The translations under genes were made by a program, and so were the position numbers. Below the pieces are notes generated by a model that saw only the letters and a list, made by a program, of their open reading frames with translations, searched no databases and had not been told where the DNA came from. From positions 1 through 36,521 of the forward strand of contig JALDAN010000006.1 in the NCBI GenBank assembly GCA_022729355.1: a DNA stretch of 36,521 nucleotides, written 5' to 3'. Each line of letters begins with the position of its first letter. Within the stretch, counting starts at the first letter, position 1. Source of the stretch: Candidatus Nanohalarchaeota archaeon. Its GTDB lineage: Archaea; Nanohalarchaeota; Nanosalinia; Nanosalinales; Nanosalinaceae. Shown piece by piece: positions 4,335 to 19,113 of the stretch.

Positions 4335-4366
4335 TTTGCATATAGGTGTCCGTAAATTGTGTGATT

Positions 4367-4379: not shown

Positions 4380-4394
4380 AGGCTTAGTGAGCGA

Positions 4395-4437: not shown

Positions 4438-4453
4438 AATGATGTGAAGGCCT

Positions 4454-4762: not shown

Positions 4763-4804
4763 AAAGTTGTTTTCACCAATAAAACAAATTATCTAAGACA
4801 ACCC

Positions 4805-4812: not shown

Positions 4813-4835
4813 CTCTACTGCATAGATTATTACAA

Positions 4836-5552
4836 ATGATTTCTGTTTCTTTCTCTGAGCTACCGTCAGAATTCAGAGTAAAATTATCAGATGAGGGAAA
4901 AGAAGAGTTGTGGCATAGAGTGGATGAGTTCGGCGGGGTAAAGTCTCTATCAGAGGCCTTTCCTTATTCTCAGTCCAAGATGTACAATTGGAGGAACAAA
5001 GATCTTGCACTTCCTGTATCTTTTGTGAGACAGGTGATGGGAGAAAACAACTCGGAGAATGTGGAAAAATTGAAAGGACCTGGAAGCAGTGGAGAGATCC
5101 GAAATCCTGTAATCCCATTTAAAATATCAGATGAGTTACTGACTCGTGTAGAGGCCTCTGTCAAAATTAATGCGGAGGGAATACCGTTCTATATCACATC
5201 GGAGAAGTCATTGACGCAAAGATTCACAGAACTTTTATTAGGCCTAGGAGATGTCGATCACAAGATTTATGAAAGAGAGTCGCGCTACGAAGTACGGTAT
5301 CCAAAGTTTCTCCATCAGCTGTTGACAGGCCTGAAATTCGATAGAGATATAACAGCTCTAGTGGACGAGAAAGGAGAATTCAGAAATGGAGAGATATTTA
5401 TCGAAAGTCAAGAGATCAATCCTGATGAAGTTGGCGAGCTCTACTCGCGTGAGAAAAGCTTTGAACTAGCTCTTCTTAGATGTGACTCTGATAAGATAGC
5501 AGAGTTAATGGCGGAAGAATCTGAAAAAGTGAAAGGCCTAGTACAGAACTGA
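4836..5552 (+). CDS. HTH DNA-binding protein with LAGLIDADG-like region
   Basis: A 238-residue protein, probably a transcription regulator. Residues about 20-70 look like a helix-turn-helix (segment with YSQSKMYNWRNK followed by LALPVSFVRQVMG). The middle, about 100-175, recalls the fold pattern of LAGLIDADG homing-endonuclease domains in the order 'PxIPFKIS', 'GIPFYITSEKSLTQRF', 'ELLLGLG' and 'YEVRYPKFLHQLL', but the acidic catalytic residues are not obviously kept, suggesting domestication for DNA binding (compare WhiA). The C-terminus is helical and acidic. It sits opposite to the ribosomal genes, between rpl12 and rpl10, with a TATA-like element 27 bases before its ATG. Family assignment is tentative; the position suggests a role in ribosomal-protein gene control, which is inference. 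Confidence 0.65.
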   Translation: MISVSFSELPSEFRVKLSDEGKEELWHRVDEFGGVKSLSEAFPYSQSKMYNWRNKDLALPVSFVRQVMGENNSENVEKLKGPGSSGEIRNPVIPFKISDELLTRVEASVKINAEGIPFYITSEKSLTQRFTELLLGLGDVDHKIYERESRYEVRYPKFLHQLLTGLKFDRDITALVDEKGEFRNGEIFIESQEINPDEVGELYSREKSFELALLRCDSDKIAELMAEESEKVKGLVQN

Positions 5553-5587
5553 AAAATAAGATATGAAAAAGATGATTTGGAGAAGAG

Positions 5588-5600
5588 TTTAGAGACCCTT
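5588..5600. repeat. Right copy of the 13-bp inverted repeat
   Basis: TTTAGAGACCCTT, reverse complement of 4367-4379. It lies between the convergent ends of the HTH gene and rpl10, beside an AGGCCT at 5603. Confidence 0.5.
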
Positions 5601-5621
5601 TCAGGCCTCGAAACGCTCTTT

Positions 5622-6578
5622 TTACTCTTCCTCCTTTTCTTCGTTATCTTCTGAATCCTCTGAAGAATCTTCCTCATCTTCGGATTCGTCGCCTTCGTTT
5701 AGCTCTTCTTTCGCTGTTTCTAGATCGACTTCTGCGTCAACTGATTCTGCAGCTGATGCTGCATAGCTGACTGCTTCTTCGATTGTTTCTTCTTCTGGGA
5801 GGCCTTCGCTGATTGCCAGGTTTCTGGCTTTCCGTACTGCCTCCTGAATGATTGCTGGCGCAGTTGTTTCGTTGACAACTCCTGCGTTGACTGCAAGGTT
5901 GAATCCTGCTGTTGCTGCGGATTCAATATCTTCTCTGTACTCCTCTGTGTCGATGTCAAGCTCTTCTGAAGTGAAGACTTCGCCTTCACTGTATGCAATG
6001 ATCAAATCAAGTCCGATCTGCAATGGTTCAATCTCAAGCTGGTTCAGGATTTCTGCATCATCTGCAGTAATTTCCTCTCCTGCTTCAACTATGACTGAGG
6101 CTTCCTGTACATGGATGGATCCATCCTGCACCTGCACCTGTGCTCCTGCTCCCTGAAGTTTTCCAAGCATAGGGCCAGGCCCTATTCCTGTATCCCCTTC
6201 AGGTATTTCAATATCGTTCGGTGCTATTTCTCCTCCGTCAGCTGCTGCACTGGTCTGATTAGCCTGGATAAGTGAGTACAGCTGGAAAGGGTCTTTAGTT
6301 GAGAAGATGAAAGCCGGCTGCATTGCTTCATCAGTATCCAGCTCTTCTATTCCTTCTTTATCTGTCTGTTCCAGTGCGATGTTCATCAAGGTCTTTCTAG
6401 ACATCTTGATGTCTGCAAACTCCTCGATCTCTGACTCAATCTCTTGAAGCTGTCTTGCAGGGAGGCTGTGCATATCAAGGATGCCGATTACGTCGTAGTC
6501 TTCAAGTGCTTCCTTGAACTCCTCTACTTTTGCCTCTTTCTGTTCACGGGTGAGGCTCTTCGGCTTTGGTTGCACCAT
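5622..6578 (-). CDS. rpl10: Ribosomal protein L10 (archaeal P0)
   Basis: Base of the ribosomal stalk: binds 23S rRNA with L11 and carries the L12 dimers. It has 318 residues. The RNA-binding N-terminal domain (1-105) includes the archaeal insertion region (about 106-180), followed by helical spines for L12 dimers (about 215-290) and a very acidic tail (about 295-318). The tail ends in EEKEEE and lacks the GLGxMF-type end that archaeal L10 and L12 proteins usually share, while L12 here keeps it. Start ATG overlaps the rpl1 stop by one base (TGATG) and is preceded by a GAGGTG ribosome-binding site. Last gene of the secE operon. Confidence 0.95.
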   Translation of the reverse strand: MVQPKPKSLTREQKEAKVEEFKEALEDYDVIGILDMHSLPARQLQEIESEIEEFADIKMSRKTLMNIALEQTDKEGIEELDTDEAMQPAFIFSTKDPFQLYSLIQANQTSAAADGGEIAPNDIEIPEGDTGIGPGPMLGKLQGAGAQVQVQDGSIHVQEASVIVEAGEEITADDAEILNQLEIEPLQIGLDLIIAYSEGEVFTSEELDIDTEEYREDIESAATAGFNLAVNAGVVNETTAPAIIQEAVRKARNLAISEGLPEEETIEEAVSYAASAAESVDAEVDLETAKEELNEGDESEDEEDSSEDSEDNEEKEEE

Positions 6579-7198
6579 CAGTTATCCACCTCTACTGTAG
6601 GACCCATAGTGGTCTTTATCATCACGTTCTTGATGTTGTTGTCTCCTTTTGGAAGATGTTCCTCTACAAAGTTCAGTACGGAGCTTGCGTTCCTTGAGAC
6701 TGCATTGATGTCGTGATTCTCCATTCCAACTTTCACCTGTAGAAGAGGCTGATCCTTTACCGTAATCCTGATAGTGTTCCTCAAGTCTTCAATTGTCTCA
6801 GTAGGATCACTTCCAGGAGGCGTCGGATCTGGCATCATATTACGAGGCCCGAAGACCTGTCCAAGATGCTGTCCAATCTTAGGCATCAGAGGAGCCTCAG
6901 CAATAAGGAAGCTGAACTCTTCCGCAAGCTGCTTAGCCTCATTAGGATTATCAAACATCTCCTCAAGCTCATCCTCGCTGACTTTTCTGTCCGCTGCTTC
7001 ATCATTCAATGAGTCGCCGATAACAGCAACTTTCGTATCTTCATCAGCCTTGTTAGGAAGCTTCAAGTCCTCATTAACCCTGTTATTAGGATCTGATAGG
7101 TCAAGATCCCTGAAGTTAATGATCATATCAATGCTTTCATCGAAATTCCTATCTCCTGAGGCCTCTAATGCGTCTTCAATCGCCTGTTCAAAGTTCAT
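6578..7198 (-). CDS. rpl1: Ribosomal protein L1
   Basis: Large-subunit protein of the L1 stalk, involved in release of deacylated tRNA; in many archaea it also represses its own operon by binding mRNA. It has 206 residues, near the usual 210. Recognisable segments are the N-terminal helix and strand, PMMPDPTPPG-type loop around residues 130-138 (read MMPDPTPPGSDPT) and the C-terminal 'KTTMGPTVEV' (about 196-205), a conserved feature of L1. A GAGGTGA Shine-Dalgarno sequence lies seven bases before the ATG. It is 15 bases downstream of rpl11 and overlaps rpl10. Autoregulation through a mimic of the rRNA site is possible but I did not identify that site. Confidence 0.96.
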   Translation of the reverse strand: MNFEQAIEDALEASGDRNFDESIDMIINFRDLDLSDPNNRVNEDLKLPNKADEDTKVAVIGDSLNDEAADRKVSEDELEEMFDNPNEAKQLAEEFSFLIAEAPLMPKIGQHLGQVFGPRNMMPDPTPPGSDPTETIEDLRNTIRITVKDQPLLQVKVGMENHDINAVSRNASSVLNFVEEHLPKGDNNIKNVMIKTTMGPTVEVDN

Positions 7199-7213
7199 TG
7201 TTTAGTCACCTCT

Positions 7214-7711
7214 CTAGAGGCCCTCCGCGGCCTCAATTCTGTCATCGTATTTTCCTTCGGAGACTTCTTGCTGGAAGTCGTAGGCGTCTTTTCCGTCGAT
7301 CTGCACTCCCATTGACTGGGCTGTTCCTGCAATCTCTTTGATTGCACCATGCAGGTCCTTGGCTACTAAATCGGATGCCTTCATACGTGCTACCTGACAT
7401 AGTTGATCGAAAGAAAGGTCTCCTACTTTCTCTCTGTTCGGCTCGGCTGCTCCTGACGCTATGCCGAGTTCTTCTTTGATGAGGCCTGCTGCAGGAGGTT
7501 TTCCTACTTCTATTTCGAAGTCTCCTGTTTCCTCATCTACTTCGACGTCTACAGGTACTTCCTGTCCCTCGAATTCTGATGTTTTTTCGTTGATTTTGCT
7601 GACCACTTCTCCTACATCTGCAGGGAGTGGTCCTAGTTCTGGTCCTAGCGGAGGCCCAGCTGAAGCTGATCCTCCTTCTACCAACATTGAAATGGTAGTC
7701 TTGTCTCCCAT
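7214..7711 (-). CDS. rpl11: Ribosomal protein L11
   Basis: Binds the GTPase-associated region of 23S rRNA next to the stalk. It has 165 residues, typical for archaea. The N-terminal domain begins with TTISMLVEGGSASAGPPLGP, the hallmark Pro-rich L11 segment (about residues 4-23), and the C-terminal rRNA-binding domain spans about 75-150 with GTAQSMGVQIDG near 128-139. The initiating ATG has a GAGGT site about 13 bases upstream. It follows spt5 by 23 bases and precedes rpl1 by 15, in the normal archaeal order. Confidence 0.96.
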   Translation of the reverse strand: MGDKTTISMLVEGGSASAGPPLGPELGPLPADVGEVVSKINEKTSEFEGQEVPVDVEVDEETGDFEIEVGKPPAAGLIKEELGIASGAAEPNREKVGDLSFDQLCQVARMKASDLVAKDLHGAIKEIAGTAQSMGVQIDGKDAYDFQQEVSEGKYDDRIEAAEGL

Positions 7712-7734
7712 AGTATTTTTTACCTCATTGAAAT

Positions 7735-8172
7735 TTAGTCTTGTTTTGCTTTTTTACGTACCATGTCGGCGTCTACAGTGGTTGGTATAGGTACTGCGGC
7801 TTCGAGTAGTTCTATTGTGACTTCTCTGTTTGTTTCGTCTACTCTTGTGATTTTTGCTTCTTCTCCTTTGAATGCGCCGCCTATGACTTCAACTTCATGT
7901 CCTACTTCAAGTTTGATATCTTCCTGTTCGTCGTCCAGGTACTTTTCAATCTTTTCTACCTTGACTTCGTCATCGATTATTCCGTTGATGTTTCTTACTT
8001 CGGATGCTAGATCTCTGATGTCTGATTCCTTGCCCTCTATGAAGATATATCCTTTCAGATCTGCTGGATGGAAAGCAGCCTTGATGTCAAGATTTTTGCT
8101 TCTAATAGCACTCTTCAATGCGTTCAGAGCTGTCTTTTCACGTCCTCTTGTTGTTCGGGCAGTAAGTATCAT
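7735..8172 (-). CDS. spt5: Transcription elongation factor Spt5 (NusG)
   Basis: Universal RNA polymerase processivity factor that binds the clamp and works with Spt4. It has 145 residues, the usual length for archaea. The NGN domain covers about 1-85 (IILTARTTRGREKTAL start in the form ILTARTTRGREK) and a KOW domain follows at about 92-135 (VGHEVEVIGGAFKGEEAKI segment). Charged KKAKQD tail. A GAGGT site precedes the ATG by eight bases. It lies between secE (11 bases upstream) and rpl11, matching the conserved archaeal operon. Confidence 0.95.
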   Translation of the reverse strand: MILTARTTRGREKTALNALKSAIRSKNLDIKAAFHPADLKGYIFIEGKESDIRDLASEVRNINGIIDDEVKVEKIEKYLDDEQEDIKLEVGHEVEVIGGAFKGEEAKITRVDETNREVTIELLEAAVPIPTTVDADMVRKKAKQD

Positions 8173-8183
8173 TCTTTATTACC

Positions 8184-8405
8184 TCAGATAAACATAGGAA
8201 TCAGATTTGCTACAAGGTGGAATACAAACCCTATGAATCCTATAAAAATGGTTCCTGCTACAGTTACCTTTGCAGCCATCATGTACTCTTCTTTACCAGG
8301 CTTCTCGGTAATCTTCAGAACCCTTTGAGACTCCTTTATGGTATTCTTCAGATCGTCCTTCTTTGCCAAAACCGCTTTTTTAATCTTTTTAGGCTTGAAA
8401 TCCAC
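8184..8405 (-). CDS. secE: Protein translocase subunit SecE (Sec61 gamma)
   Basis: Small tail-anchored subunit of the Sec translocon. It has 73 residues: a basic amphipathic N-terminal half (KPKKIKKAVLAKKDD) followed by a conserved hinge (RVLKITEKPGKEEY, about 28-41) and one transmembrane segment (about 45-68). The start is the GTG at 8405, the only start that keeps the normal length; a weak GGTG lies just before it. First gene of the secE-spt5-rpl11-rpl1-rpl10 operon, with a leader of about 115 bases from a TATA element at 8546-8553. Confidence 0.93.
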   Translation of the reverse strand: MDFKPKKIKKAVLAKKDDLKNTIKESQRVLKITEKPGKEEYMMAAKVTVAGTIFIGFIGFVFHLVANLIPMFI

Positions 8406-8520
8406 GTTTTACACCTTTACAAAAAACCCGGTTTGAACATTTTTCACATGAGAGAAAAAGCCATTAACCAGTAACTGAATTAACGGCTCCCTCCCACTAA
8501 AAGTGGTTCCAACGGGCCTT
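8406..8520 (-). promoter_or_regulatory. Structured 5' leader of the secE-rpl10 operon
   Basis: If transcription starts about 26 bases from the TATA element, the leader is about 115 bases, unusual in a window of mostly leaderless genes. Two hairpins can form on the minus strand: an 8-bp stem (8480-8487 with 8460-8467, one G-U pair, 12-base loop) and a 5-bp stem (8502-8506 with 8494-8498, 3-base loop). It does not fold as a tRNA. A regulatory site, for example for L1 or another operon product, is possible but not shown. Confidence 0.45.
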
Positions 8521-8545
8521 CTTAAACCACAATAAAATAGCAAAA

Positions 8546-8553
8546 TTTATAAA
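8546..8553 (-). promoter_or_regulatory. TATA box of the secE operon
   Basis: Symmetrical TTTATAAA, a strong archaeal TATA match, about 140 bases before the secE GTG and facing no other nearby gene on the minus strand. Confidence 0.6.
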
Positions 8554-8601
8554 CTGAATGAACAACGCCCTAAAAATCCATTATTGTACATGAAATTTTT
8601 T

Positions 8602-8943
8602 TTAGTACGAAGCTGTTCTTGAAGGACAATCCTGATGCTGTACGCTAAGCCCTTGAAGTCGAGAATCTACACCACTCTCAAAAGTCACGGTTTCTCCTCC
8701 CTCAGGCGTCTCAAACTCTTTAACAATACTCGCCTCGTTGAAGTAATTCCAGGTAACTGTAACGTTTCCAAACGAATCTCTACCCATATTAGCCACCTCT
8801 GCTTGCCCCCCATCTGCATCTATAACTCGAAGATGCATTGAGCTGCACGTAACACTCTGCTCACTTTCCTCTGACTCCTCAGCATCTATACACCCTGACA
8901 CAATTAATGTGAGAGCCAGTAGCAGGATTATGCGTCTATTCAT
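8602..8943 (-). CDS. Small lipoprotein with beta-rich extracellular domain
   Basis: A 113-residue secreted lipoprotein. The N-terminus has basic residues (MNRR), a hydrophobic core and the lipobox VSGC (Cys about residue 18 from the ATG at 8943), then an acidic linker and a small beta-rich domain (about 30-113) containing GNVTVTWNYFNE and closing cysteine CPSR. The pattern resembles FxLYD/CARDB-like modules of archaeal surface proteins, but no family is certain. A GTG one codon upstream (8946) is an alternative start. TATA-like TTTTTAAG is at 8971-8978. Predicted to be anchored outside the cytoplasmic membrane; function unknown. Confidence 0.75.
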   Translation of the reverse strand: MNRRIILLLALTLIVSGCIDAEESEESEQSVTCSSMHLRVIDADGGQAEVANMGRDSFGNVTVTWNYFNEASIVKEFETPEGGETVTFESGVDSRLQGLSVQHQDCPSRTASY

Positions 8944-9037
8944 CACTCAATTAGAAATATTGTGCTCTTCGTTTTTAAGCTCAAGGCCTGTATGAACAGT
9001 TATTCAGGCCTCAGATAAGCATAAAGAAGATGTTAAC

Positions 9038-9081
9038 AAGGAAAATAAAAGATATGTGGATTTAGAGGCCTCTGGAGGCCT
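9038..9081 (-). terminator. Terminator of ftsZ built from paired AGGCCT
   Basis: Two AGGCCT copies at 9076-9081 and 9066-9071, separated by four bases, can pair into a 6-bp stem immediately past the ftsZ stop codon. The minus strand then runs into a T-rich stretch (complement of about 9038-9052). Two further copies at 9006 and 8984 follow. Confidence 0.55.
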
Positions 9082-9083
9082 GT

Positions 9084-10175
9084 TTAGATAAATTCTACTC
9101 CAAGCTCTTCCTCGATTTCCTCTTCATACTCATCGCTGTGGGTCTTTTCAGGCCCGTAGATCTGTGGGCTGTCGACTCCTGTGACGATGATCATGGCCTG
9201 GAGCGAGTTATCCATGTCTTCTCGTACCTGTGCTCCCCAGATGATCTTTGCTGAGTCGGAGAGCTTGTCGCTTACTGTGTTGACTACTTCCTGTGCCTCG
9301 TTTAGTGACAGTGATGTGCCTCCTGTTACGTTGGCCAGAGCTCCTTTTCCGCCTTCGATATCTACGTCAAGAAGTGGATTGGATAAGGCCTTCTGTACTG
9401 CTTCTGTGGCTCTTGAGTCGGTGTCGCTTTGTCCCATTCCGATCATGGCGATCCCTCCCTCTCCCATGACGGCGCGGATATCTGCGAAGTCCAGGTTGAC
9501 GAGGCCTGGCTTTGTTACAAGTTCTGTTACGCCTTTGACTGCGTTTACAAGTATTTCGTCTGCAATCTTGAAGGCTGTGTTGAGTGATACGTCTGGAACA
9601 ATTTCCAGTAGTTTGTCGTTAGGGATTACGATCAGTGTGTCGACTACTTCCTCCATTCTTTCAAGTCCGTATTCTGCGTTTTCCTGTCGGCTTCTTCCTT
9701 CCATCTCGAAAGGCAGTGTAACGATTCCGACTGTCAGTGCATCCTGTTTCTTGGCCTGTTCTGCGATTACAGGTGCTGATCCTGTTCCTGTTCCTCCCCC
9801 GAGGCCGCATGTGATGAAGACCATGTCTGCACCGTCAATTGATTCCTTTACTTTCTGTTGAGACTCTTTTGCGGATTCCTCTCCAACTTTAGGATCGGCT
9901 CCTGCTCCAAGGCCTCCTGTAAGCTCTTTTCCGATCAATACTTTCTTATCGGCATTTGCATACAGAAGATCCTGTGCGTCGGTGTTCATAGCGATGGTCT
10001 CACATCCCTCAATTCCGACGTCAACAAGTCTGGAGATCGTGTTGTTCCCGGCGCCACCGGTTCCAACGACCTTTATATCTGCCTTCCTCTGCTCTATCAG
10101 GTCTTCCAGTTCACTGTCGATATCATGGTTTTGGTTTCCTGATCTACCAGCGTTTCGAGCCTCATTATTATTCAT
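9084..10175 (-). CDS. ftsZ: Cell-division GTPase FtsZ
   Basis: Tubulin-family GTPase that forms the division ring. It has 363 residues from the ATG at 10175; an upstream in-frame extension (to 10232) overlaps the promoter and is not used here. Motifs: GTGGAGNN near the N-terminus (about 39-46), the GTP-binding signature [10 protein letters not shown] (about 124-133) and the T7 loop NLDFADI (about 228-234) that completes GTP hydrolysis. The C-terminus is acidic and ends with [13 protein letters not shown], which resembles the short conserved tail of archaeal FtsZ1-type proteins. TATATAAAAA at 10216-10225 gives a leader of about 20 bases. Placement next to secE-spt5 is the common euryarchaeal arrangement. 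Paralogue class (FtsZ1) is likely but not proven. Confidence 0.95.
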
Positions 10176-10215
10176 ATACAAGCAACCCTTTCTATACAGA
10201 CTGTTATCACCAACG

Positions 10216-10225
10216 TATATAAAAA
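10216..10225 (-). promoter_or_regulatory. TATA box of ftsZ
   Basis: TATATAAAAA (minus reading TTTTTATATA), centred about 45 bases before the ATG at 10175, so ftsZ likely has a leader of roughly 20 bases. An AGGCCT at 10239 lies just upstream. Confidence 0.55.
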
Positions 10226-10344
10226 TGGTCAAAAAACAGGCCTAAAAATTCACTCAACAGTAAAAAATCATAGAAATAAAGGCATAATTCGATACTAGAA
10301 AAAACTGTAAAAATGTATTTAGAGGTCTTTTATCAAGGCCTTTT

Positions 10345-10986
10345 TTACTCTTTGATCTCGACTTCCTCGAAACCGGTGTAGTCAAGGATTTCCTGTCTGA
10401 TCTCGTCCTTCACGTTTTCCGGTAGCTCGTGATCATGTCCTTCGATATCGTGATCGATTATCACTTTGTCTCCGTCGAACTCTATGTCTCCGTGTCCAAG
10501 CCTGTAATCGAATATCTTCTCTGCTTTCTCTTCATCTCCCTCGACTTTTTCAAGTAATTCTACCTCGTATTCAAGATCTTTCCCTGAGAGCGGATGATTG
10601 AAGTCGACACGTACGCGTCCACTGCTGTTCGACAGAACACGTCCCTGCCTGTTCCCAACCATTACACGGTCTCCAGGCCTCACGTTAACATCCTGTTTCT
10701 TGAACTCCTTCTCCGGATACGTCTCGATATTACCTGCCTCACGTTTTCCGTAGGCCTTTTCTGCAGGAATCTCGACTTCTCTTTCTTCGCCGACTTCCAT
10801 GTCTTCAAGTACTTCTTCAAGGCCTTCTATTACGTAGCCCTCTCCGATAAGCACAGGGACTGGGCTGTAATCCATTTCTTCGCTGTACAGGCCTTCTTCC
10901 TTGGCTCTTTCTTCATTTGAAAGGTCGAAAATTTCTCCGTCTTGGCTGCCGACGTAGTCGATAAGCACGAGATCTCCTTGTTCCAT
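10345..10986 (-). CDS. FKBP-type peptidyl-prolyl isomerase, SlyD-like
   Basis: Catalyses cis-trans isomerisation of prolyl bonds and acts as a folding chaperone. It has 213 residues from the ATG at 10986; an upstream open frame is rejected because it runs through the promoter and lacks family homology. The FKBP core begins with DLVLIDYVG (about 4-12), contains VPVLIGEGYVIEGLEEVL (about 47-64) and GEEREVEIPAEKAYG (about 71-85), with an inserted IF/flap domain as in archaeal long FKBPs (about 87-145), and ends with an extra acidic domain (about 150-213) holding a GHGDIEF and EGHDHELP segment, possibly metal binding. Divergent from the coiled-coil gene across 59 bases. Confidence 0.92.
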   Translation of the reverse strand: MEQGDLVLIDYVGSQDGEIFDLSNEERAKEEGLYSEEMDYSPVPVLIGEGYVIEGLEEVLEDMEVGEEREVEIPAEKAYGKREAGNIETYPEKEFKKQDVNVRPGDRVMVGNRQGRVLSNSSGRVRVDFNHPLSGKDLEYEVELLEKVEGDEEKAEKIFDYRLGHGDIEFDGDKVIIDHDIEGHDHELPENVKDEIRQEILDYTGFEEVEIKE

Positions 10987-11008
10987 CTTAGACACACGTA
11001 AAGTTACG

Positions 11009-11023
11009 CGTTTAACATTTAAG
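11009..11023. promoter_or_regulatory. Overlapping divergent TATA elements, FKBP and coiled-coil genes
   Basis: An A/T segment with GTTTAAC and ATTTAAG lies about 26 bases from both start codons (10986 minus, 11046 plus). Both messages would be leaderless. Confidence 0.45.
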
Positions 11024-11045
11024 AGTGCTTTACCACGTGGACAGT

Positions 11046-11315
11046 ATGGGATGGATGGACAGTCTTCCGAACAAACTTCAGGACTCACTTGAAAAAATAC
11101 TTGATCAGACAAACAGAAACGAAGAGGCCTATATGCAGGCGGAAAACGCATCCGTTGGACAGCTATGGGTGGCGATCGCACATCTCAACGCAAAAGTCGA
11201 GAACCTGGAAAAACTGGCTCATGCACAGAGAAAGGCACTGAACAACATGGAGCAGGAAGTCAACGTCAATAAACACCTAGATGAAGATCTGGAAGAAAGC
11301 CTCAGAAGGTACTAA
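11046..11315 (+). CDS. Small coiled-coil protein of unknown function
   Basis: An 89-residue, soluble, helical protein. Residues about 5-25 form a hydrophilic helix and about 33-85 carry a heptad-like pattern (AHLNAKVENLEKLAHAQRKAL region) consistent with a coiled coil, probably dimeric. The ATG at 11046 is chosen because it lies about 26 bases after a TATA-like element; an upstream ATG at 11025 falls within the promoter, and another ATG at 11055 is possible. It ends 55 bases before the leuS stop, with a bidirectional AGGCCT hairpin between. No family recognised; similar short coiled-coil proteins with conserved 'QLWxAIAHLNAKVE' cores are plausible in related genomes. Confidence 0.65.
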   Translation: MGWMDSLPNKLQDSLEKILDQTNRNEEAYMQAENASVGQLWVAIAHLNAKVENLEKLAHAQRKALNNMEQEVNVNKHLDEDLEESLRRY

Positions 11316-11370
11316 AAGAAAAATTGTAAGGCCTCCGGAAAGAAGGAGGCCTCTCACCGATTTTCCTTAT
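11316..11370. terminator. Bidirectional terminator built from paired AGGCCT
   Basis: AGGCCTCC (11329-11336) and GGAGGCCT (11345-11352) form a perfect 8-bp stem with an 8-base loop between two convergent genes. On the plus strand it is followed by a T-rich stretch (11358-11372) and on the minus strand by TACAATTTTTCTTTT. It can therefore stop transcripts of both the coiled-coil gene and leuS. Confidence 0.75.
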
Positions 11371-14229
11371 TTATTCCAGTATGATAGCTGGCTTTCCTGG
11401 CACTGCTCTGGAGGCCTTTTCCTCGCTGCTTTCTTCTTCTGTCTCTATCGTTGTCCAGGAGTCGAACTCTTTCTCAAGGAATTTCTCATTCTCCTCAAGT
11501 AGTTCAAGCTCATCTCTCTGTGAGAATACTCTGTCCGGAAGATCTCCGGGAGAATCAAGATAATCCTTCAGATAGGATTCGATAGTTTCAGGCTCGGCAT
11601 CAGTTCTCTCGATCAACTCCTGCATGGCTTCGCCGAAGTCAGGCCTGTCCTCCACAACGTCTATGAGTTCTCTGAAGAGGCCTCTTTTCTCCTCTCCCGC
11701 CACTATAATCTTGATCTCTTCGTAGTCTCCTACTATTTCTGCAACTTCTCTTATGTCGCTCATCGTCTCCTGTACAAGCTGTTCGGAGGCCTCTACTTCT
11801 TCATCTACAAGTTCTTCATCGGCTTCAGGCCATTCTGCCTGTGAAGCAAATCCTTCGCCTCCGATTTCTGTCCATAGTTCCTCACATATGTGCGGTGTGA
11901 AAGGCGACATCAGTTTGATCTGTGTTTCCACAAGTTCGTTGACTATTTCCGTATTCAGTTCTGTGGAGCGGTTTCTGTACTGGTTGATTAGAGAGTTCAG
12001 CTCGAAGAAGGCGTTCAGTCCTGCTTTTCTTGTCTGGAACTCTTCAAGGCCTTCAGTAGCTTCTCTTATGATTTTCTGAAGCTTTGAAAGCGCGTATCTA
12101 TCAAGTCTGTTGAGTTCTCGTTCTTCTCCTGAATCGTATAGTTCTTTGCTTCGTGTGTAGAAGTTTCTGACTTTGTTGAAGTATTCTTCTACATCGTCCT
12201 CGTTCCAGTCGAAGTCCTGCCACGGCTCTCTTGAAGCAAAGATGAAGAAACGTGTCGTATCTGCTCCATACTCCTCTATAGCGTTGTCAGGAAGCTTAAC
12301 GTGTCCCTTACTGCTTGACATCTTCTTCCCTTCCAGTGTTCCAAGCCCCCATGTAGCGATTCCTTTAGGCCAGTCAGGCTGATCAAACAGGGCAGTATGG
12401 TGGTACATCATGAACGTCAAGTGATTCTGAATCAGTGGATAAGCTGATGTACGCCAGTCAAGTGGATACCAGTAGCTGAAGCTTTCACGTGCCTCCTCAA
12501 CTACTTCTTCATCAATCCCCGTCTTTTCAGCGATCTTTGAGGCCTCTCCTTCATCATTGAATACGTAATCGAAGAACTCTGGCTCCAGTTTTTCCGCTTC
12601 AACATCGCTGATGATGTTCCTGATAGTGTAGAATGCCATGTAGACTGTGGAATCGGATAGAGGCTCTACAACAAAATCGTCATCGAAAGGAAGCTTTGTA
12701 CCGAGGCCGAAGTTTCTGATAGCCGGCCAGCTCTCAAGCCAGCCAATTGTATGCTCGTAGTCCTCACGTTTCTCTTCAGGAATGATATCTATGCTGTTCA
12801 GAAGCTTCTGAACCTTGTCCTTCCATCCCTTATCATCATATTCAAGGAACCAGGACTGCTGCATGGAGACAATCACCTTCCCGCCTGAACGAGATACAAC
12901 TTCCTCTGAGAAATCGTAGAGTGAGCCAAAGTAACCTTTATCCTCGAAATCCCTGATAAGCACATCTTTAACAGAGTTAACGTTCTCTGAAGCGTACTCT
13001 CCACATGAACCGTTCAGCACTCCGTTATGGAACTCTTTCTCGTACACTTCATCAGTAGCCTCCTCCAAGGCCTCTTCATCCTGCTGTGACTCCACGCCGT
13101 AACTGTGGCAGGCCTCCTCAGCAGGAATATCATTGTAAAAATCCGTATTGATTATTTTCTTCGGCTCTATACTTCTGACTTCGTTCGGCGAAATCCCGTA
13201 CCGCTTCAGCAATGCCTCAGAATCCTTCAAATCCTGCAAGGAAATCCAGTCATACGGTGCGTGAGCAGGCACTGACATCACGAGGCCTGAACCGGAGTCC
13301 GTATCAACAAAGTCAGCAGGAAGAGTGATCACCTTCTCTCCTGTCACAGGATTTCTGGCGTAAAGACCCATTAAGTCCTCTCCAGGAACATCTTTCACAC
13401 TCTTCACTTCGTAATCCTGATGATCAATCTTGACAGAGGCCTCTTCGCTGACGATCCATTTCTCGCCGTCAACTTCCACAAGTTTGTACGTGGCTGATGG
13501 ATCTGCGTGTGTATGTGTTACTCCGAAAACTGTTTCAGGCCTCAAAGTCGCCATCGGAAGCACTACTTCATCTCCCTCGTACTCGGCTGTGAATTTGACT
13601 AGACTGTACTCCTGTTTCTCTGCATCCTCTCCTTCAAGTAAGTCGTGCGTCGTCACAGGGTTCTCATCTTTCAGGCAGTACTTGGTAGGATGCATCCCTT
13701 TCTTCACTAGGCCTTGCTCCCGCAGCCGCTTGTACTGCCATTCGATGAATCGGTTGTAATGATCGTCGTTGGTTGTGAATTCACGCCTCCAGTCCACTGA
13801 GAAGCCCAGATTCTTCATGTTCGGCTTGTAAGAGTTTTCGATAAAGTAATTAGCATAATCCATAGGCTCCTCCATCGCTTCAAGCTCCTCCTCAGGTACG
13901 TTATATACTTCTGTCAGTGTCTCCCACTGATCTTCCTCTCCTTCCTTTAAACGGTTCAGGGCACCGATAATCGGTGTTCCGGTTACGTGCCATGCCATCG
14001 GGAAAAGCACGTTGTAGCCCTGCATACGCTTGAAGCGGGCGAAAACATCAGGCAACGTATAAGTTCCGACATGTCCTATATGCATCCCGCCGCTCGGATA
14101 CGGATAAGCAACGGTGATGAAGAATTTGTCATCTTCATTGGGATCTGACTCAAAAACCCTTTCTTCTTCCCATTTTTCCTGCCATTTATCCTCAATCGAA
14201 TTCATTCTGGAGGCGAAATCCTCAGTCAT
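11371..14229 (-). CDS. leuS: Leucyl-tRNA synthetase, archaeal type
   Basis: Charges tRNA-Leu. It has 952 residues from the ATG at 14229 (a GTG two codons upstream is an alternative), full length for archaeal/eukaryal LeuRS. Class I motifs: HIGH at residues 50-53 within PSGGMHIGHVGTYT, and KMSSS near residue 635. The CP1 editing domain occupies about 190-400, with a T-rich segment and the conserved DSGSGLVMSVPAHAP-type region read as GSGLVMSVPAHAPYD. The anticodon-binding and C-terminal domains (about 700-952) are acidic. Divergent from minD with a TATA-like GATATAAATT (14249-14257) 25 bases upstream, implying a leaderless message. Confidence 0.96.
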   Translation of the reverse strand: MTEDFASRMNSIEDKWQEKWEEERVFESDPNEDDKFFITVAYPYPSGGMHIGHVGTYTLPDVFARFKRMQGYNVLFPMAWHVTGTPIIGALNRLKEGEEDQWETLTEVYNVPEEELEAMEEPMDYANYFIENSYKPNMKNLGFSVDWRREFTTNDDHYNRFIEWQYKRLREQGLVKKGMHPTKYCLKDENPVTTHDLLEGEDAEKQEYSLVKFTAEYEGDEVVLPMATLRPETVFGVTHTHADPSATYKLVEVDGEKWIVSEEASVKIDHQDYEVKSVKDVPGEDLMGLYARNPVTGEKVITLPADFVDTDSGSGLVMSVPAHAPYDWISLQDLKDSEALLKRYGISPNEVRSIEPKKIINTDFYNDIPAEEACHSYGVESQQDEEALEEATDEVYEKEFHNGVLNGSCGEYASENVNSVKDVLIRDFEDKGYFGSLYDFSEEVVSRSGGKVIVSMQQSWFLEYDDKGWKDKVQKLLNSIDIIPEEKREDYEHTIGWLESWPAIRNFGLGTKLPFDDDFVVEPLSDSTVYMAFYTIRNIISDVEAEKLEPEFFDYVFNDEGEASKIAEKTGIDEEVVEEARESFSYWYPLDWRTSAYPLIQNHLTFMMYHHTALFDQPDWPKGIATWGLGTLEGKKMSSSKGHVKLPDNAIEEYGADTTRFFIFASREPWQDFDWNEDDVEEYFNKVRNFYTRSKELYDSGEERELNRLDRYALSKLQKIIREATEGLEEFQTRKAGLNAFFELNSLINQYRNRSTELNTEIVNELVETQIKLMSPFTPHICEELWTEIGGEGFASQAEWPEADEELVDEEVEASEQLVQETMSDIREVAEIVGDYEEIKIIVAGEEKRGLFRELIDVVEDRPDFGEAMQELIERTDAEPETIESYLKDYLDSPGDLPDRVFSQRDELELLEENEKFLEKEFDSWTTIETEEESSEEKASRAVPGKPAIILE

Positions 14230-14248
14230 AATCACAACTACGGAGCCA

Positions 14249-14257
14249 ATTTATATC
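14249..14257 (-). promoter_or_regulatory. TATA box of leuS
   Basis: Minus-strand GATATAAAT, centred 25 bases before the leuS ATG. Confidence 0.55.
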
Positions 14258-14302
14258 AAATTAAGTCAAAAACCAGAGGCCTCCAATTTCTTCACGTATT
14301 AA

Positions 14303-14309
14303 TTTAAAT
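14303..14309 (+). promoter_or_regulatory. TATA box of the first minD
   Basis: TTTAAAT centred 26 bases before the ATG at 14332; leaderless spacing. Confidence 0.55.
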
Positions 14310-14331
14310 GATCGTAACTTAAGCTAATTGT

Positions 14332-15099
14332 ATGACTCGTTTAATCTGTGTGAGCAGTGGAAAGGGAGGTGTCGGCAAGACTACAGTAACCGCAAACCTC
14401 GGCGCCGCATTAACGAAGTTCGGTGCTGATACAATAATTCTTGATGCAAACCTGACGAATCCCAACCTCGGATTCCATATAGGCATCCCACTATACCCTA
14501 CTACGCTCCACGACGTCCTCAAAGGAGATGCACATATTACAGAGGCCATGTACATCCACGATTCAGGTCTCAGAGTAGTTCCTGCAGGCCTCTCAGTAGA
14601 GGATCTACGTGATACAACACCGGATAATCTTTCCGATGTACTTCTTGATGCTGTTGGAGAACCGGATTTCGTACTTGTGGATTCCGCAGCAGGCCTTGGA
14701 CAGGAATCAATCAGTGCTGTAGAGGCCTCTGATGAAGTACTTGTCGTAACTAATCCGAATCTTCCGGCTGTAACTGATGCCCTGAAGACTGTTGATATCG
14801 CAGAAGAGACAGGTACACAGGTGACAGGAGTTATACTGAATAAGATTAAGGATCACGATGCCGAGCTTTCTAAGGAGGAAGTCGAGTCGATGATCGGTTA
14901 CGAGGTCATGATGGAGATTCCTGAACATCAGAAAGTTGAGGAGGCCTTGGCGAAGAAGAAGCCTGTTGTACATCACGAGCCTGATCATCACGTTGCTGAA
15001 CGCTTCAACGTTATCGCAGCAGATGTAGCAGGCCTCGAATACGAGCCGCAAATCGGCGGTAAAGGCATCATCACTCGTTTACTGGAGAAGTTCAGGTAA
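14332..15099 (+). CDS. minD: MinD-like ParA-family ATPase, first copy
   Basis: Deviant-Walker ATPase that switches between membrane-bound dimer and soluble monomer to position cell structures. It has 255 residues. The P-loop is SSGKGGVGKTT (about 8-18), switch I includes the LDANLTNPN segment (about 39-47) and switch II is VLVDSAAGLG (about 121-130). The C-terminus, GGKGIITRLLEKFR, ends in a short amphipathic helix like the membrane-targeting sequence of MinD. A second copy follows 79 bases later. MinC and MinE are absent, as is normal in archaea, where such proteins place motility or division machinery; the exact role here is unknown. Confidence 0.9.
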   Translation: MTRLICVSSGKGGVGKTTVTANLGAALTKFGADTIILDANLTNPNLGFHIGIPLYPTTLHDVLKGDAHITEAMYIHDSGLRVVPAGLSVEDLRDTTPDNLSDVLLDAVGEPDFVLVDSAAGLGQESISAVEASDEVLVVTNPNLPAVTDALKTVDIAEETGTQVTGVILNKIKDHDAELSKEEVESMIGYEVMMEIPEHQKVEEALAKKKPVVHHEPDHHVAERFNVIAADVAGLEYEPQIGGKGIITRLLEKFR

Positions 15100-15146
15100 A
15101 AATTACAAGCCCATATTCTTGAATTCTTCCTTTTTCGATAGTCAGG

Positions 15147-15154
15147 TTTTTAAT
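15147..15154 (+). promoter_or_regulatory. TATA box of the second minD
   Basis: TTTTTAAT centred about 28 bases before the ATG at 15179, so the second minD is probably transcribed on its own. Confidence 0.5.
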
Positions 15155-15178
15155 GCGGGGAATCCCAATTACTTCTAT

Positions 15179-15940
15179 ATGACCAGGGTAATTTCTGTAG
15201 TCTCCGGTAAAGGCGGTGTCGGAAAGACGACTATGACCTCCAATCTCGGAGTAGCACTTGCAAAACAGGATGAAGACGTTGTGATAATCGATGGAAACTT
15301 CTCCGGAGCAAATATCGCACAGCACTTCGGAATGGGATTTCAGGAAGTATCCCTCAACGATGTCATGAACGGAGACGCATACATCACACAGGCCCTGGCC
15401 AAGCATCCTGAAGGAGTCTCTATTCTACCAGCATCAATACTTGAATTCGACGCAGACTCCGAAAACCTGAAGCACGCACTTATCGACTTCCTTGGAGACA
15501 AAGACTTCGTACTGATCGACGCAGCGGCAGGAGTAGGAGAAGAAGTCGAGGCAGCAGTAGAGGCCTCCGACGAAGTACTACTTGTATCAAAGCCAGAACT
15601 CCCGGCACTGACAAATGCTCTTGGAGCCAAGAAACTGGCAGAGGAACTTGAAAGAGAAGTACTAGGCCTCGTACTGAACGAGGTCAGAGGAGAAAAATCA
15701 GAGGTACGTAACGAGGATATCCAGGATCTTGTGCAGGAAGAGATTATCGGAGAAGTCCCTGACCACAAGCATGTCCGTGAAGCTATCGCACTACGCAATC
15801 CTGTCGTCTCACACAAGCCGAAAAGCCGTGTATCGCACGCCATCCACGACGTAGCGCACAGAGTAAAGGGGCAGGAGCCACCTGAAAGAGGCCTTTCAAC
15901 AAAGATCAGATACAAGGTAGAGGACATCGACCTATTCTAA
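15179..15940 (+). CDS. MinD-like ParA-family ATPase, second copy
   Basis: Paralogue of the preceding gene, 253 residues from the ATG at 15179. An upstream in-frame ATG at 15119 is rejected because the extra 20 residues lie across the promoter and precede the conserved start TRVISVVSGKGG. Walker A GKGGVGKTTMTSN (about 10-22), IDGNFSGANIAQHFG in switch I and VLIDAAAGVGEE in switch II. The copies share VEASDEVL and the overall layout, so they arose by duplication. This copy ends in STKIRYKVEDIDLF, without the amphipathic membrane helix of the first copy, so the two may differ in location. It ends before two T-rich runs (15949-15972) likely to end transcription. Confidence 0.9.
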   Translation: MTRVISVVSGKGGVGKTTMTSNLGVALAKQDEDVVIIDGNFSGANIAQHFGMGFQEVSLNDVMNGDAYITQALAKHPEGVSILPASILEFDADSENLKHALIDFLGDKDFVLIDAAAGVGEEVEAAVEASDEVLLVSKPELPALTNALGAKKLAEELEREVLGLVLNEVRGEKSEVRNEDIQDLVQEEIIGEVPDHKHVREAIALRNPVVSHKPKSRVSHAIHDVAHRVKGQEPPERGLSTKIRYKVEDIDLF

Positions 15941-15948
15941 TCCAACCT

Positions 15949-15972
15949 TTTTTCTACAGAGGTTTTTTTGAC
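15949..15972 (+). terminator. T-rich terminator after the second minD
   Basis: Two T runs (CCTTTTTTC and GGTTTTTTTG) directly follow the stop codon at 15940. Archaeal RNA polymerase can terminate on such tracts without a hairpin. Confidence 0.5.
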
Positions 15973-15975
15973 AAG

Positions 15976-15983
15976 TATTAAAT
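15976..15983 (+). promoter_or_regulatory. TATA box of the HIT-protein gene
   Basis: TATTAAAT centred about 29 bases before the ATG at 16009; leaderless spacing. Confidence 0.5.
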
Positions 15984-16008
15984 CCTCTTTTATCCAATAT
16001 TTGTAACT

Positions 16009-16530
16009 ATGACAGACCTGAAGCCTTACGAACAGTATCTGTGGAGTCCTGAACGTGAAGACTATGAGGCCTCTAAAGTGCCAGATGATATTGACTGTAT
16101 CTTCTGTGCACAGGCCTCCGGAGATGACAGAGTCACTAAGATGGCGGTGTATGAAGATGATTTTCTCATGGTGGAGCTGAATATCTTTCCTTACAACACA
16201 GGGCATCTAATGGTGATACCGAAAAGGCATGTCAACTCCATGGTGGATCTTGAAGATGAGGAGAGAAACCGGCTTTTTGCCATGGTGCAGAAAGTTGAAG
16301 AGCTTCAGAGGGAAGTCGTTGAACCTGCAGGAATCGATGTAGGAATGAATATCGGAAAGGCTGCAGGAGAATCGATTCCACATCTCCACGTCCAGCTTGT
16401 GCCGATCTACGAGAAGGACAGAGGATTCATGGAGACCAGCCTCGATACCAAAGTGATGAAGAAATCGCTTGAAGACATGAGAGAAGAGTACAGAGAGAAA
16501 AACGAGATACTAGAAGACTACTGGGACTAA
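16009..16530 (+). CDS. HIT-family nucleotide hydrolase/transferase
   Basis: HIT-superfamily enzyme of 173 residues acting on nucleotide phosphoanhydrides such as diadenosine polyphosphates. The CIFC pair (about 30-33) is a zinc knuckle typical of this group, FPYNTGHLMVIPKRH lies at about 61-75 and the active site is PHLHVQLVP (about 125-133), where the central histidine is the nucleophile; the Gln following the second His is of the type seen in Ap4A phosphorylase/GalT-like members, not the HHH triad of HinT. The rest is a C-terminal charged helix. Six bases ahead of the phosphohexomutase gene, so the two are likely co-transcribed. Substrate is uncertain. Confidence 0.88.
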   Translation: MTDLKPYEQYLWSPEREDYEASKVPDDIDCIFCAQASGDDRVTKMAVYEDDFLMVELNIFPYNTGHLMVIPKRHVNSMVDLEDEERNRLFAMVQKVEELQREVVEPAGIDVGMNIGKAAGESIPHLHVQLVPIYEKDRGFMETSLDTKVMKKSLEDMREEYREKNEILEDYWD

Positions 16531-16536
16531 CAATAT

Positions 16537-17871
16537 ATGACATCTTTCTTCCACACCTACGACCTCAGAGGCCTCCATCCCGAGGAAATCGACGTAGAAG
16601 AAGCAGAAAAAGTAGGGAAGGCCTTCGGAACCTTTGTCGATGCTGAAGAAGTCCTGATCGGGAGAGACGGCCGTAAACACGGCGAAAAAATACTTGAAGC
16701 ATTTATCAGAGGCCTCAAATCCACAGGTGCCGACGTAGCAACCTCAGGGATAGTTCCGTCACCGGTTATCTACTACGGACAGCGAAAACACGGTTTTGGC
16801 GCTGCAGTAGTTGTCACGGCATCCCACAATCCTGCCGAGTACACAGGATTCAAGTTCTGCCGTGAAGAAGCCCTAGCCATGTCAAGAGAAGGAGGCATGA
16901 AACAGATACAGGAAATATACGAAAAAGAGGCCTTCCAGAAAGGTGAAGGAGAGGAAAGAGAAATAGACCTTGTTGAAGACTACATAGAAGCTGTAAAAGA
17001 TACTATAGGAGCAACAGGCCTGGAACTGAAGATCAACTGCGGTAACGGAGTCACAGGAATGATCGCTGAAGAACTTTTCGAGGCCTTGGAATGTGATGTA
17101 TCAACGATTAACTGTGAAGTCGATGGAGAGTTTCCAAATCATCTGCCTGATCCGGGAAACGAAGAGGCCCAGGAAGCACTGTCATCCGGCATGGAGGATG
17201 AGGAGCTTGGCATAATCTTTGATGGAGATGGGGATAGAGCAGGATTCATACTTCCAGGCTACGGCTATATCCCTGAAGATGAAGTGCTGGCACTTTTCTC
17301 GGAGGAGGCCTTGAAGAAGAGGAAAGGCAAAGTAATCTACGACCTCCGGGCCTCTAAACTTGTTCCTGAAGTAGTAAAAGAGAACGGAGGAACGCCTGTG
17401 GAGACACGTGTCGGCCACACATTCATCTCAGAGGCCATACATGAAGACCCGGAAATAGTTTTTGCCGGAGAGCTTTCAGGCCACTACTACTTCCCTGAAT
17501 GGGACTTCCCGTTCGACGATGCACTTTTCGCAGCAGCACTCATGACACAGATAGCAGCAAAGACTGATCTAATAAGACGTCTGGAAAACTATCCTGATTA
17601 CCCTGTATCACCGGAACTCAGGATTGACTGCCCAAACGACGCCAAAAAGGAAGTAGTAAATAGAGTAGAGGCCTCGTATCCGGACAGAGAGATAACGGAT
17701 CTTGACGGCGCAAAGATACACTTCGAGAAAGGATGGGCCTTGGTCAGGCCTTCATCCACAGAGCCGAAAATGAGCGTAAGAGTAGAGGCAGATACGGAAG
17801 AAGATATGAAGAGAATACTGAGTGAGATAGAGGCCTGTGTACAGGAGGCTATAGAAGAGGCCTCATCCTAG
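16537..17871 (+). CDS. Phosphohexomutase (phosphoglucomutase/phosphomannomutase)
   Basis: Interconverts 1- and 6-phosphates of glucose or mannose; here it would join glucose-6-phosphate to glycogen and sugar-nucleotide synthesis. It has 444 residues and the four alpha-D-phosphohexomutase motifs: TASHNP with phosphoserine about residue 96, metal loop DGDGDR (229-234), sugar loop GELSGHYYF (311-319) and phosphate loop RPSSTEPKM (about 404-412). It begins with the family's TYDLRG. The last nine bases overlap the 3' end of the ADP-dependent kinase gene on the other strand. Substrate preference cannot be read from sequence; the neighbouring glycogen genes favour glucose phosphates. Confidence 0.92.
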   Translation: MTSFFHTYDLRGLHPEEIDVEEAEKVGKAFGTFVDAEEVLIGRDGRKHGEKILEAFIRGLKSTGADVATSGIVPSPVIYYGQRKHGFGAAVVVTASHNPAEYTGFKFCREEALAMSREGGMKQIQEIYEKEAFQKGEGEEREIDLVEDYIEAVKDTIGATGLELKINCGNGVTGMIAEELFEALECDVSTINCEVDGEFPNHLPDPGNEEAQEALSSGMEDEELGIIFDGDGDRAGFILPGYGYIPEDEVLALFSEEALKKRKGKVIYDLRASKLVPEVVKENGGTPVETRVGHTFISEAIHEDPEIVFAGELSGHYYFPEWDFPFDDALFAAALMTQIAAKTDLIRRLENYPDYPVSPELRIDCPNDAKKEVVNRVEASYPDREITDLDGAKIHFEKGWALVRPSSTEPKMSVRVEADTEEDMKRILSEIEACVQEAIEEASS

Positions 17872-19113
17872 CTCTGCTGTAAAGGCTGCGGAGGATATTA
17901 TGTCTCCGAGTCCTACAACTCTTTCAGGATCTTCATGGATGAGAGTAGGTATAGCAACAACTGTAATATCATTTATATCTGCTATACCAGTCTCTACAAA
18001 GTCTTCAAGACCTAGATGGTGTGCAAAGTCTTCAAGATCATCAAGCCGATGAAGATGCTTTCCTTCAAGCCCTAACTCACGTAAATCATCTGTGTCAGGA
18101 AGCTCTCCGGTATCTGCTGCAGCAATTGCACAGTTCTCGGCGTAAAGCATCGACTCCCGTATCTTCTCAGGCCTTATATCGTAATCATCTGCGAAGACAA
18201 CGTGATACCTGTAAGTATGAATATGCACTCTATCCACATCCTCCAGAAGCCTCTTTGACAGCTGGAAGGCCTCTCCTAGACTCAACTCGTCTTCAACGTC
18301 CATACCTTTTATCTCGGCGACTTCAAGTGCTTCATTTTCGTCCAGGCCTACGCTATCGAACTCCGGCAGAAGATCCCTCAGAATCTTCTTAGATTTTTTC
18401 TCCTGCATATCAACGTATTCAAGATGTGCAGGTGTATTCAAAAGGCCTATCTGTATCTCGGCTTTATCGATCTTGGCTGAGAAGTTTCCGTCTGCATCAT
18501 GGAAGCCTGAAAGTACTGCTGCGTCAATATTTCTGTCAAGAGTTTCGATTCTCTCCTCTATTCCTTTTCTGAAGTAAGGCCCGAAGCCCTCCAGTCTATC
18601 GGAGACGATCATTCTACATGTTTTCTCGCCGTCTATCTCCACTATCATGTTTTCCTTGGTTCTATCAGTATTTACAGCGTCTTTAATCCGCTTCAGCTTC
18701 AATCCGGAGTCAATTACAGGATATACGATCTCCTCGCTCATCATATCTGCCAGTTCCTTTGAAAGGAACGGTGTATAGAATATACTGTAGTTGCCTGTCC
18801 TGTTCATGAATTCTGCTATTATTCCTCCCTGGCCTCCAAGCTGACGATTGGCTTCAGGGAACTCCTTAGCCATGTAACGTCCAAGAACCTCAACGTTCTC
18901 ACCTGTTTCAACACAATGGCTCAAAACCTGCTTCAATTCTTCTGGGCCTTCAACACGTTCCATTAGCTCGCTTTCAACACTTTCAAGATCAACATCAATC
19001 GCATCAAAATCGTAGATATGATCAATATTCGCATTGAAGCCTGTCAAGACGCTTAACTCCTCTCTTTCAATGCTGGAGGCCTTCATGTATCTCTTTCTCC
19101 AGATATCTTTCAC
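17863..19113 (-). CDS. ADP-dependent sugar kinase (phosphofructokinase/glucokinase family)
   Basis: Uses ADP instead of ATP to phosphorylate glucose or fructose-6-phosphate in the modified archaeal glycolysis. It has 416 residues from the GTG at 19113, which overlaps the tpiA stop by four bases (GTGA); an ATG at 19086 is an alternative. The ribokinase-like fold shows GFNANIDHIYDF (about 25-36), the QLGGQGG loop (about 91-97), the NTPAHLEYVDMQ segment, HIHTYRYH (about 297-304) and the catalytic GLGDIISS (401-408, base Asp404). Third gene of the debranching-enzyme/tpiA operon. ADP-PFK and ADP-GK are hard to tell apart by motif. Convergent with the phosphohexomutase. Confidence 0.88.
   Translation of the reverse strand: MKDIWRKRYMKASSIEREELSVLTGFNANIDHIYDFDAIDVDLESVESELMERVEGPEELKQVLSHCVETGENVEVLGRYMAKEFPEANRQLGGQGGIIAEFMNRTGNYSIFYTPFLSKELADMMSEEIVYPVIDSGLKLKRIKDAVNTDRTKENMIVEIDGEKTCRMIVSDRLEGFGPYFRKGIEERIETLDRNIDAAVLSGFHDADGNFSAKIDKAEIQIGLLNTPAHLEYVDMQEKKSKKILRDLLPEFDSVGLDENEALEVAEIKGMDVEDELSLGEAFQLSKRLLEDVDRVHIHTYRYHVVFADDYDIRPEKIRESMLYAENCAIAAADTGELPDTDDLRELGLEGKHLHRLDDLEDFAHHLGLEDFVETGIADINDITVVAIPTLIHEDPERVVGLGDIISSAAFTAELG

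What the first reader, a model, noticed from the sequence alone, without database searches (positions are those of the whole stretch)
11329..11352. Paired AGGCCT forms a bidirectional terminator between convergent genes
A perfect 8-bp stem (AGGCCTCC / GGAGGCCT) sits between the stops of the coiled-coil gene and leuS with T-rich runs on both outer sides. This parallels the use of inverted uptake-sequence pairs as terminators in Neisseria and Haemophilus, and suggests that the repeat has been recruited to end transcripts.
Basis: partly seen in the sequence, partly recalled or inferred. Interest (0 to 1): 0.6.

Follow-up and report, generated by a model that had tools for sequence, protein, structure and literature searches.

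The report
Repeat-pair hairpin between convergent archaeal genes
In a tiny salt-loving archaeon whose genome is packed with about 3,600 copies of the six-letter palindrome AGGCCT, two neighbouring copies form a hairpin where two genes meet tail to tail, and genome-wide statistics suggest that such pairs have been recruited to stop transcription.

Summary
The hairpin is real: AGGCCTCC-GGAAAGAA-GGAGGCCT at 11329-11352, -16 kcal/mol, midway in the 55-bp gap between the stops of a conserved coiled-coil gene and leuS. T-rich stretches lie on both outer sides and are stronger on the leuS side. The genome is a nanohaloarchaeon. AGGCCT occurs 3,601 times in 886 kb and fills 71-78% of all codon contexts that permit it; a sister species without this enrichment fills 10-15%. 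Close pairs are about 11-fold enriched within 40 nt of stops (26 seen, 2.4 expected). At gene ends the excess is confined to spacings giving 3-9-nt loops (2.5x over independent placement, p=0.001); in coding sequence the same spacing is depleted (0.3x). Close pairs at gene ends are followed by T-rich DNA; wide pairs and single copies much less so. Hairpin-plus-T-tail structures occur at 6% of gene-end views here, nearly all with AGGCCT arms, and at under 1% in two relatives lacking the motif. Recruitment for 3'-end formation is therefore well supported, though without transcript data. The DNA-uptake analogy fails as membership: no ComEC, a palindromic 6-mer, no extended motif. No C5-methyltransferase explains the motif either.

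The parts
11329..11336 (.). left stem arm AGGCCTCC (AGGCCT copy plus CC)
11337..11344 (.). 8-nt loop GGAAAGAA
11345..11352 (.). right stem arm GGAGGCCT (GG plus AGGCCT copy)
11353..11372 (+). interrupted T-rich tract downstream of the hairpin, read from the coiled-coil gene (CTCACCGATTTTCCTTATTT), running into the leuS stop codon
11311..11328 (-). T-rich tract downstream of the hairpin, read from leuS (TACAATTTTTCTTTTAGT)
11046..11315 (+). 89-aa coiled-coil-like protein, no Pfam match; convergent partner of leuS in G001, G004, G005, G013 and G017 too
11371..14229 (-). leuS, leucyl-tRNA synthetase (tRNA-synt_1, Anticodon_1, editing domain)

Best explanation
AGGCCT is a highly iterated palindrome driven to near saturation in this nanohaloarchaeal genome by an unknown genome-wide process. 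Because the unit is its own reverse complement, any two copies 3-9 nt apart make a GC-rich hairpin. Where this arose just past stop codons in front of a T-tract, selection kept it, and in coding sequence selection removed it. The pair at 11329-11352 is one such recruited hairpin. On both strands it gives a stem followed by a U-rich tract, so it most likely helps to end, and perhaps to stabilise the 3' ends of, the leuS and coiled-coil transcripts and limits read-through into the opposing gene. Shown: sequence, structure, placement, spacing bias, tail association, absence from relatives. Inferred: that RNA polymerase (with aCPSF1) actually stops there, and in both directions.
For: Close pairs (start distance 9-22) within 40 nt past stops in G000: 26 (9 tail-to-tail, 17 tandem) against 2.4 expected if uniform; head-to-head 2 against 3.1; G003 shows 7 against about 1. 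Relative to independent placement at the observed local density, the excess at gene ends is only at start distance 9-15 (loop 3-9): 25 against 9.9, p=0.0012; distances 6-8, 16-22 and 23-36 give 0.20, 0.75 and 0.97. In coding sequence 9-15 is depleted, O/E 0.31. T fraction after pairs at gene ends is 0.56 (convergent) and 0.48 (tandem) against 0.33-0.34 at matched motif-free ends; singles 0.40 and 0.36; pairs exceed wide pairs (p=0.0006 and 0.01) and coding pairs (p=6e-18). Hairpin-plus-T-tail structures: 27 of 437 gene-end views in G000, 23 with an AGGCCT arm, 0 in the coding control; G001 2/281, G004 1/211. Most orthologous ends compared in G001 and G004 have pyrimidine-rich tracts but no comparable hairpin. 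At the leuS junction itself the sister species G001 has an unrelated 9-bp hairpin, -14.1 kcal/mol.
Against: No transcript data. Archaeal RNA polymerase terminates at U-tracts without needing a hairpin (PMC8716108), and aCPSF1 is present here. Single AGGCCT copies, which form no hairpin, are also enriched past stops, including in short operon-like gaps. Stem extension beyond the hexamers is not significant, although this site has it. The focal start distance (18) falls in a bin that is not enriched in itself. At other relatives the leuS junction has no hairpin. G010, with a lower motif density, shows little pair enrichment.
Confidence: 0.62

Rival explanations
1. Incidental: AGGCCT is so common and so dense just past stops that pairs and hairpins appear by chance; termination is done by the T-tracts alone.
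For: Pairs between consecutive genes are only mildly above independent placement when all spacings 9-22 are lumped and strictly intergenic positions used (8 vs 5.5, 15 vs 10.5). Termination at U-tracts without hairpins is the archaeal norm (PMC8716108).
Against: The excess is specific to hairpin-compatible loops; T-tails go with pairs, not with singles or wide pairs; the same spacing is depleted in coding sequence.
Confidence: 0.2
2. The hairpin is a 3'-end stabiliser or exonuclease barrier, or an RNA-processing signal, rather than a terminator.
For: A GC-rich hairpin close to the stop codon fits; the sequence evidence cannot separate this from termination.
Against: The T-rich tract directly after close pairs is what termination predicts and stabilisation alone does not require.
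Confidence: 0.12
3. Single AGGCCT copies at gene ends bind a protein that blocks polymerase; pairs are just double sites.
For: Singles are enriched 3-6-fold just past stops, beyond the general level in the genome. A protein roadblock has been suggested for the AGATC termination motif of Haloferax (PMC7237163).
Against: Copies in genes (3,188) would block transcription too; singles have little T-tail association; the spacing rule matches hairpin geometry.
Confidence: 0.06

Closest known systems
Paired DNA uptake sequences (DUS/USS) used as intrinsic terminators in Neisseria and Pasteurellaceae (Kingsford et al. 2007, PMC1852404; PMC2397512)
   Same: A highly repeated genomic word; close inverted pairs concentrated in tail-to-tail gaps and past stops, rare in genes, with T tails.
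   Different: The unit is a 6-bp palindrome (no orientation, no extended motif) at 4 per kb; no ComEC; archaeal polymerase with aCPSF1; a smaller share of gene ends.
HIP1 (GCGATCGC) and other highly iterated palindromes of cyanobacteria (PMC4390886)
   Same: A very abundant short palindrome spread through genes and spacers, patchy between related genomes.
   Different: HIP1 is linked to orphan methyltransferases and occurs about once per 1000 nt; here no C5 MTase is found in motif-rich genomes and the density is about four times higher; gene-end hairpins are an added feature.
Haloarchaeal termination sites (Haloferax volcanii, PMC7237163)
   Same: T-stretch motif in spacers; hairpins upstream of a subset of sites, one confirmed in vivo but weaker than a T stretch.
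   Different: There the hairpins are not built from one repeated genomic word.

Membership tests
Intrinsic (hairpin + U-tract) terminator | GC-rich stem of about 7-8 bp or more, short loop | tested here: met
   8-bp stem, 8-nt loop, -16 kcal/mol
Intrinsic (hairpin + U-tract) terminator | U-rich tract directly after the stem | tested here: met
   leuS strand: T5 starting 5 nt after the stem, T fraction 0.61; the + strand is weaker (0.44, T4 starts 8 nt after the stem)
Intrinsic (hairpin + U-tract) terminator | Transcripts end there, dependent on the stem | not testable with these tools
   no transcript data held
DNA uptake sequence (DUS/USS) | Competence machinery (ComEC) | tested here: not met
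   PF03772 in 0 of 19 family genomes; control search positive in 10 of 14 named genomes
DNA uptake sequence (DUS/USS) | Oriented 9-12-nt motif with extended flanks | tested here: not met
   palindromic hexamer with only weak flank bias in the window
DNA uptake sequence (DUS/USS) | More than 1,000 copies; close pairs at gene ends | tested here: met
   3,601 copies; pair enrichment past stops
Highly iterated palindrome (HIP-like) | Hugely over-represented short palindrome in genes and spacers | tested here: met
   3,601 copies; the next palindromic hexamer has 467; saturation of permissive codon contexts
Highly iterated palindrome (HIP-like) | Cognate orphan DNA methyltransferase | tested here: not met
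   PF00145 absent from all motif-rich genomes; PF01555 gives only a weak sub-cut-off match in G000 and none in G003; other MTase families not searched, G000 is 90% complete

The most novel reading that the evidence does not exclude
AGGCCT is the footprint of an unknown, apparently methyltransferase-independent genome-wide drive or reader in some Nanohaloarchaeota, and its copies were exapted in an archaeal lineage into hairpin terminators, independently repeating what happened to uptake sequences in Neisseria and Haemophilus.
Probability: 0.35. Interest if true: 0.8.

Novelty: new variant of a known kind. Interest (0 to 1): 0.6.

Why it matters
It gives an archaeal, natural before-and-after comparison. 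Close relatives with and without the iterated palindrome share orthologous gene ends, so one can ask how repeat-derived hairpins are added to ends that appear to rely on U-tracts alone, and whether archaeal polymerase makes use of them. The same motif poses a sharp open question: what drives one hexamer to occupy about three quarters of all permitted positions, with no DNA methyltransferase or uptake machinery in sight.

Tried and rejected
Rejected: chance hairpin. Rejected as membership: DUS/USS. Rejected for now: HIP-type methylation explanation by C5 or classic N4/N6 MTases. Neutral-spacer explanation of the post-stop enrichment considered: motif density relative to base composition is about 25-55x in long spacers but 115-245x in short post-stop gaps, so relaxation of coding constraint alone does not explain it. 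Stem-extension test: no significant excess. General folding excess at gene ends: clear in G000, weaker in G003/G010, weak or absent in G001/G004. Rfam: no RNA family in the window. Literature: no paper found on AGGCCT in nanohaloarchaea.

Full report
OBSERVATION. The window (G000:C26) contains AGGCCTCCGGAAAGAAGGAGGCCT at 11329-11352, an 8-bp perfect stem with an 8-nt loop, folding at -16.2 kcal/mol on the + strand and -15.3 on the - strand; 2 and 1 of 200 dinucleotide shuffles do as well. It lies between the stop of an 89-aa coiled-coil-like protein without Pfam match (11046-11315, +) and that of leuS (11371-14229, -). Both outer sides are T-rich when read outward: 0.61 T in 18 nt on the leuS side and 0.44 on the coiled-coil side, against 0.33 at matched motif-free convergent ends. 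The simple terminator scan calls it on the leuS strand only, and its total number of hits in 1-20,000 equals the shuffled mean.

ORGANISM AND MOTIF. The genome has 886 kb in 48 contigs. The proteome is strongly acidic (D+E 19.6%, K+R 10.1%). The family member G009 matches in motif counts, size and position the record NHA25 'Candidatus Nanohalarchaeota archaeon', so the window is from a nanohaloarchaeon. AGGCCT occurs 168 times in the window (8.8 expected) and 3,601 times in the genome; the next palindromic hexamer has 467. In the same family G003, G010, G016, G017 and G018 are also rich, G012 is intermediate, and the other twelve, including both same-genus species G001 and G002, are not. In G000, 78% of Arg-Pro pairs and 71% of the permissive Gly-Leu and Ala contexts are spelled with AGGCCT; in G001 it is 10-15%. 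In alignments with G001 most copies face near-miss sequences without gaps (115 one-mismatch, 121 two-mismatch, 23 gapped), so copies arise by substitution in place, not by insertion.

GENE ENDS. With a simple codon-based gene caller (1,012 genes, 91% coding) single copies are at about 4/kb in genes and rise to 11-29/kb in the first 40 nt past convergent stops and 10-13/kb in the first 15 nt past tandem stops. G003 repeats this; G010 shows it weakly. Relative to base composition this is 115-245x in short gaps, against 25-55x in long spacers, so relaxed constraint alone does not explain it. Short operon-like gaps are raised too, so single copies cannot be read as terminators.

PAIRS. Part of this follows from the higher single density; a first test lumping all spacings gave only a mild excess. 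With finer bins, extending 10 nt into the genes, the excess over independent placement is restricted to start distance 9-15, that is loops of 3-9 nt (25 vs 9.9, p=0.0012); loops of 0-2 nt are depleted and wider spacings are neutral. In coding sequence 9-15 is at 0.31 of expectation. Hairpin geometry is thus favoured at gene ends and disfavoured in genes. The focal pair has start distance 18, but its two extra C-G pairs shorten the loop to 8.

TAILS. After close pairs at gene ends the next 18 nt hold 0.56 T (convergent) or 0.48 (tandem), against 0.33-0.34 for matched motif-free ends and 0.40/0.36 for singles. Pairs differ from wide pairs at gene ends (p=0.0006 and 0.01), from coding pairs (p=6e-18) and from the wrong side of tandem pairs (p=0.016). 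A generic search for stem >=6, loop 3-10 and T-rich tail finds 27 of 437 gene-end views in G000 (23 with an AGGCCT arm), none in coding controls, 2 of 281 in G001 and 1 of 211 in G004. Convergent regions are viewed from both sides, so these counts are not all independent.

RELATIVES. The convergent leuS/coiled-coil order is kept in G001, G004, G005, G013 and G017, with gaps of 5-28 bp. None has the AGGCCT pair; G001 has an unrelated 9-bp hairpin (-14.1 kcal/mol), and the G004 and G017 gaps barely fold. At other G000 ends with AGGCCT pairs, most orthologous ends recovered in G001 and G004 have pyrimidine-rich tracts without a comparable hairpin; one G004 end (the orthologue of C27:15980-17110) has a different hairpin followed by T6. 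The AGGCCT hairpins therefore look like lineage-specific additions to ends that rely on U-tracts elsewhere.

MECHANISM. aCPSF1 is found in all 19 family genomes. Published archaeal termination relies on U-tracts with aCPSF1, without strict need for a hairpin (PMC8716108), but hairpins lie upstream of a subset of Haloferax sites and one terminated in vivo, less efficiently than a T stretch (PMC7237163). The most likely role here is a hairpin-assisted U-tract terminator acting in both directions; 3'-end protection is the main alternative that sequence cannot separate.

COMPARISON. In use it resembles paired uptake sequences in Neisseria and Pasteurellaceae (PMC1852404): same bias to tail-to-tail gaps and same tails. 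It fails membership: no ComEC and a palindromic hexamer with weak flanks. It also resembles HIP1 of cyanobacteria (PMC4390886), but no C5 methyltransferase is present in any motif-rich genome and no convincing N4/N6 one in G000 or G003. What maintains AGGCCT is unknown.

LIMITS. Gene calls are my own; G003, G010, G001 and G004 were read for 400 kb each; G000 is about 90% complete; some p-values come from several related tests without correction; no transcript data.

Noticed in passing
whole genome G000 (window G000:C26): AGGCCT occupies 71-78% of all codon contexts that can spell it (10-15% in the sister species); copies arise by point substitution; no C5 methyltransferase or ComEC is found in motif-rich genomes. 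What drives it is unexplained.
   Followed up: partly
L031:5581-15407 (G000:C15:45581-55407): The longest motif-free stretch (9.8 kb) is essentially one 3,103-aa open reading frame with DUF2341 and Big_13 matches, GC 0.38 against 0.45, next to a tRNA-Leu gene; perhaps a recently acquired giant surface protein.
   Followed up: partly
family f1 genomes G000-G018: Motif enrichment is patchy: G000, G003, G010, G016, G017, G018 rich, G012 intermediate, all others including both same-genus species not; repeated gain or loss is implied.
   Followed up: partly
L062 / G040 (Methanophagales MAG AOM70-1): Only 10 AGGCCT in 1.5 Mb against 126 for the reversed control, that is marked avoidance; the same MAG carries two leuS homologues on different contigs (46% and 34% identity to the window's).
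   Followed up: no
G000:C23:26888-26903: An AGGCCT pair lies 10 nt past a stop codon just downstream of the aCPSF1 match (C23:25015-26871), so the termination factor's own gene appears to end in such a hairpin.
   Followed up: no
coding sequence of G000: AGGCCT copies repel each other: start distances below about 36 are under-represented (0.03 to 0.64 of expectation), beyond what hairpin avoidance alone would need.
   Followed up: no
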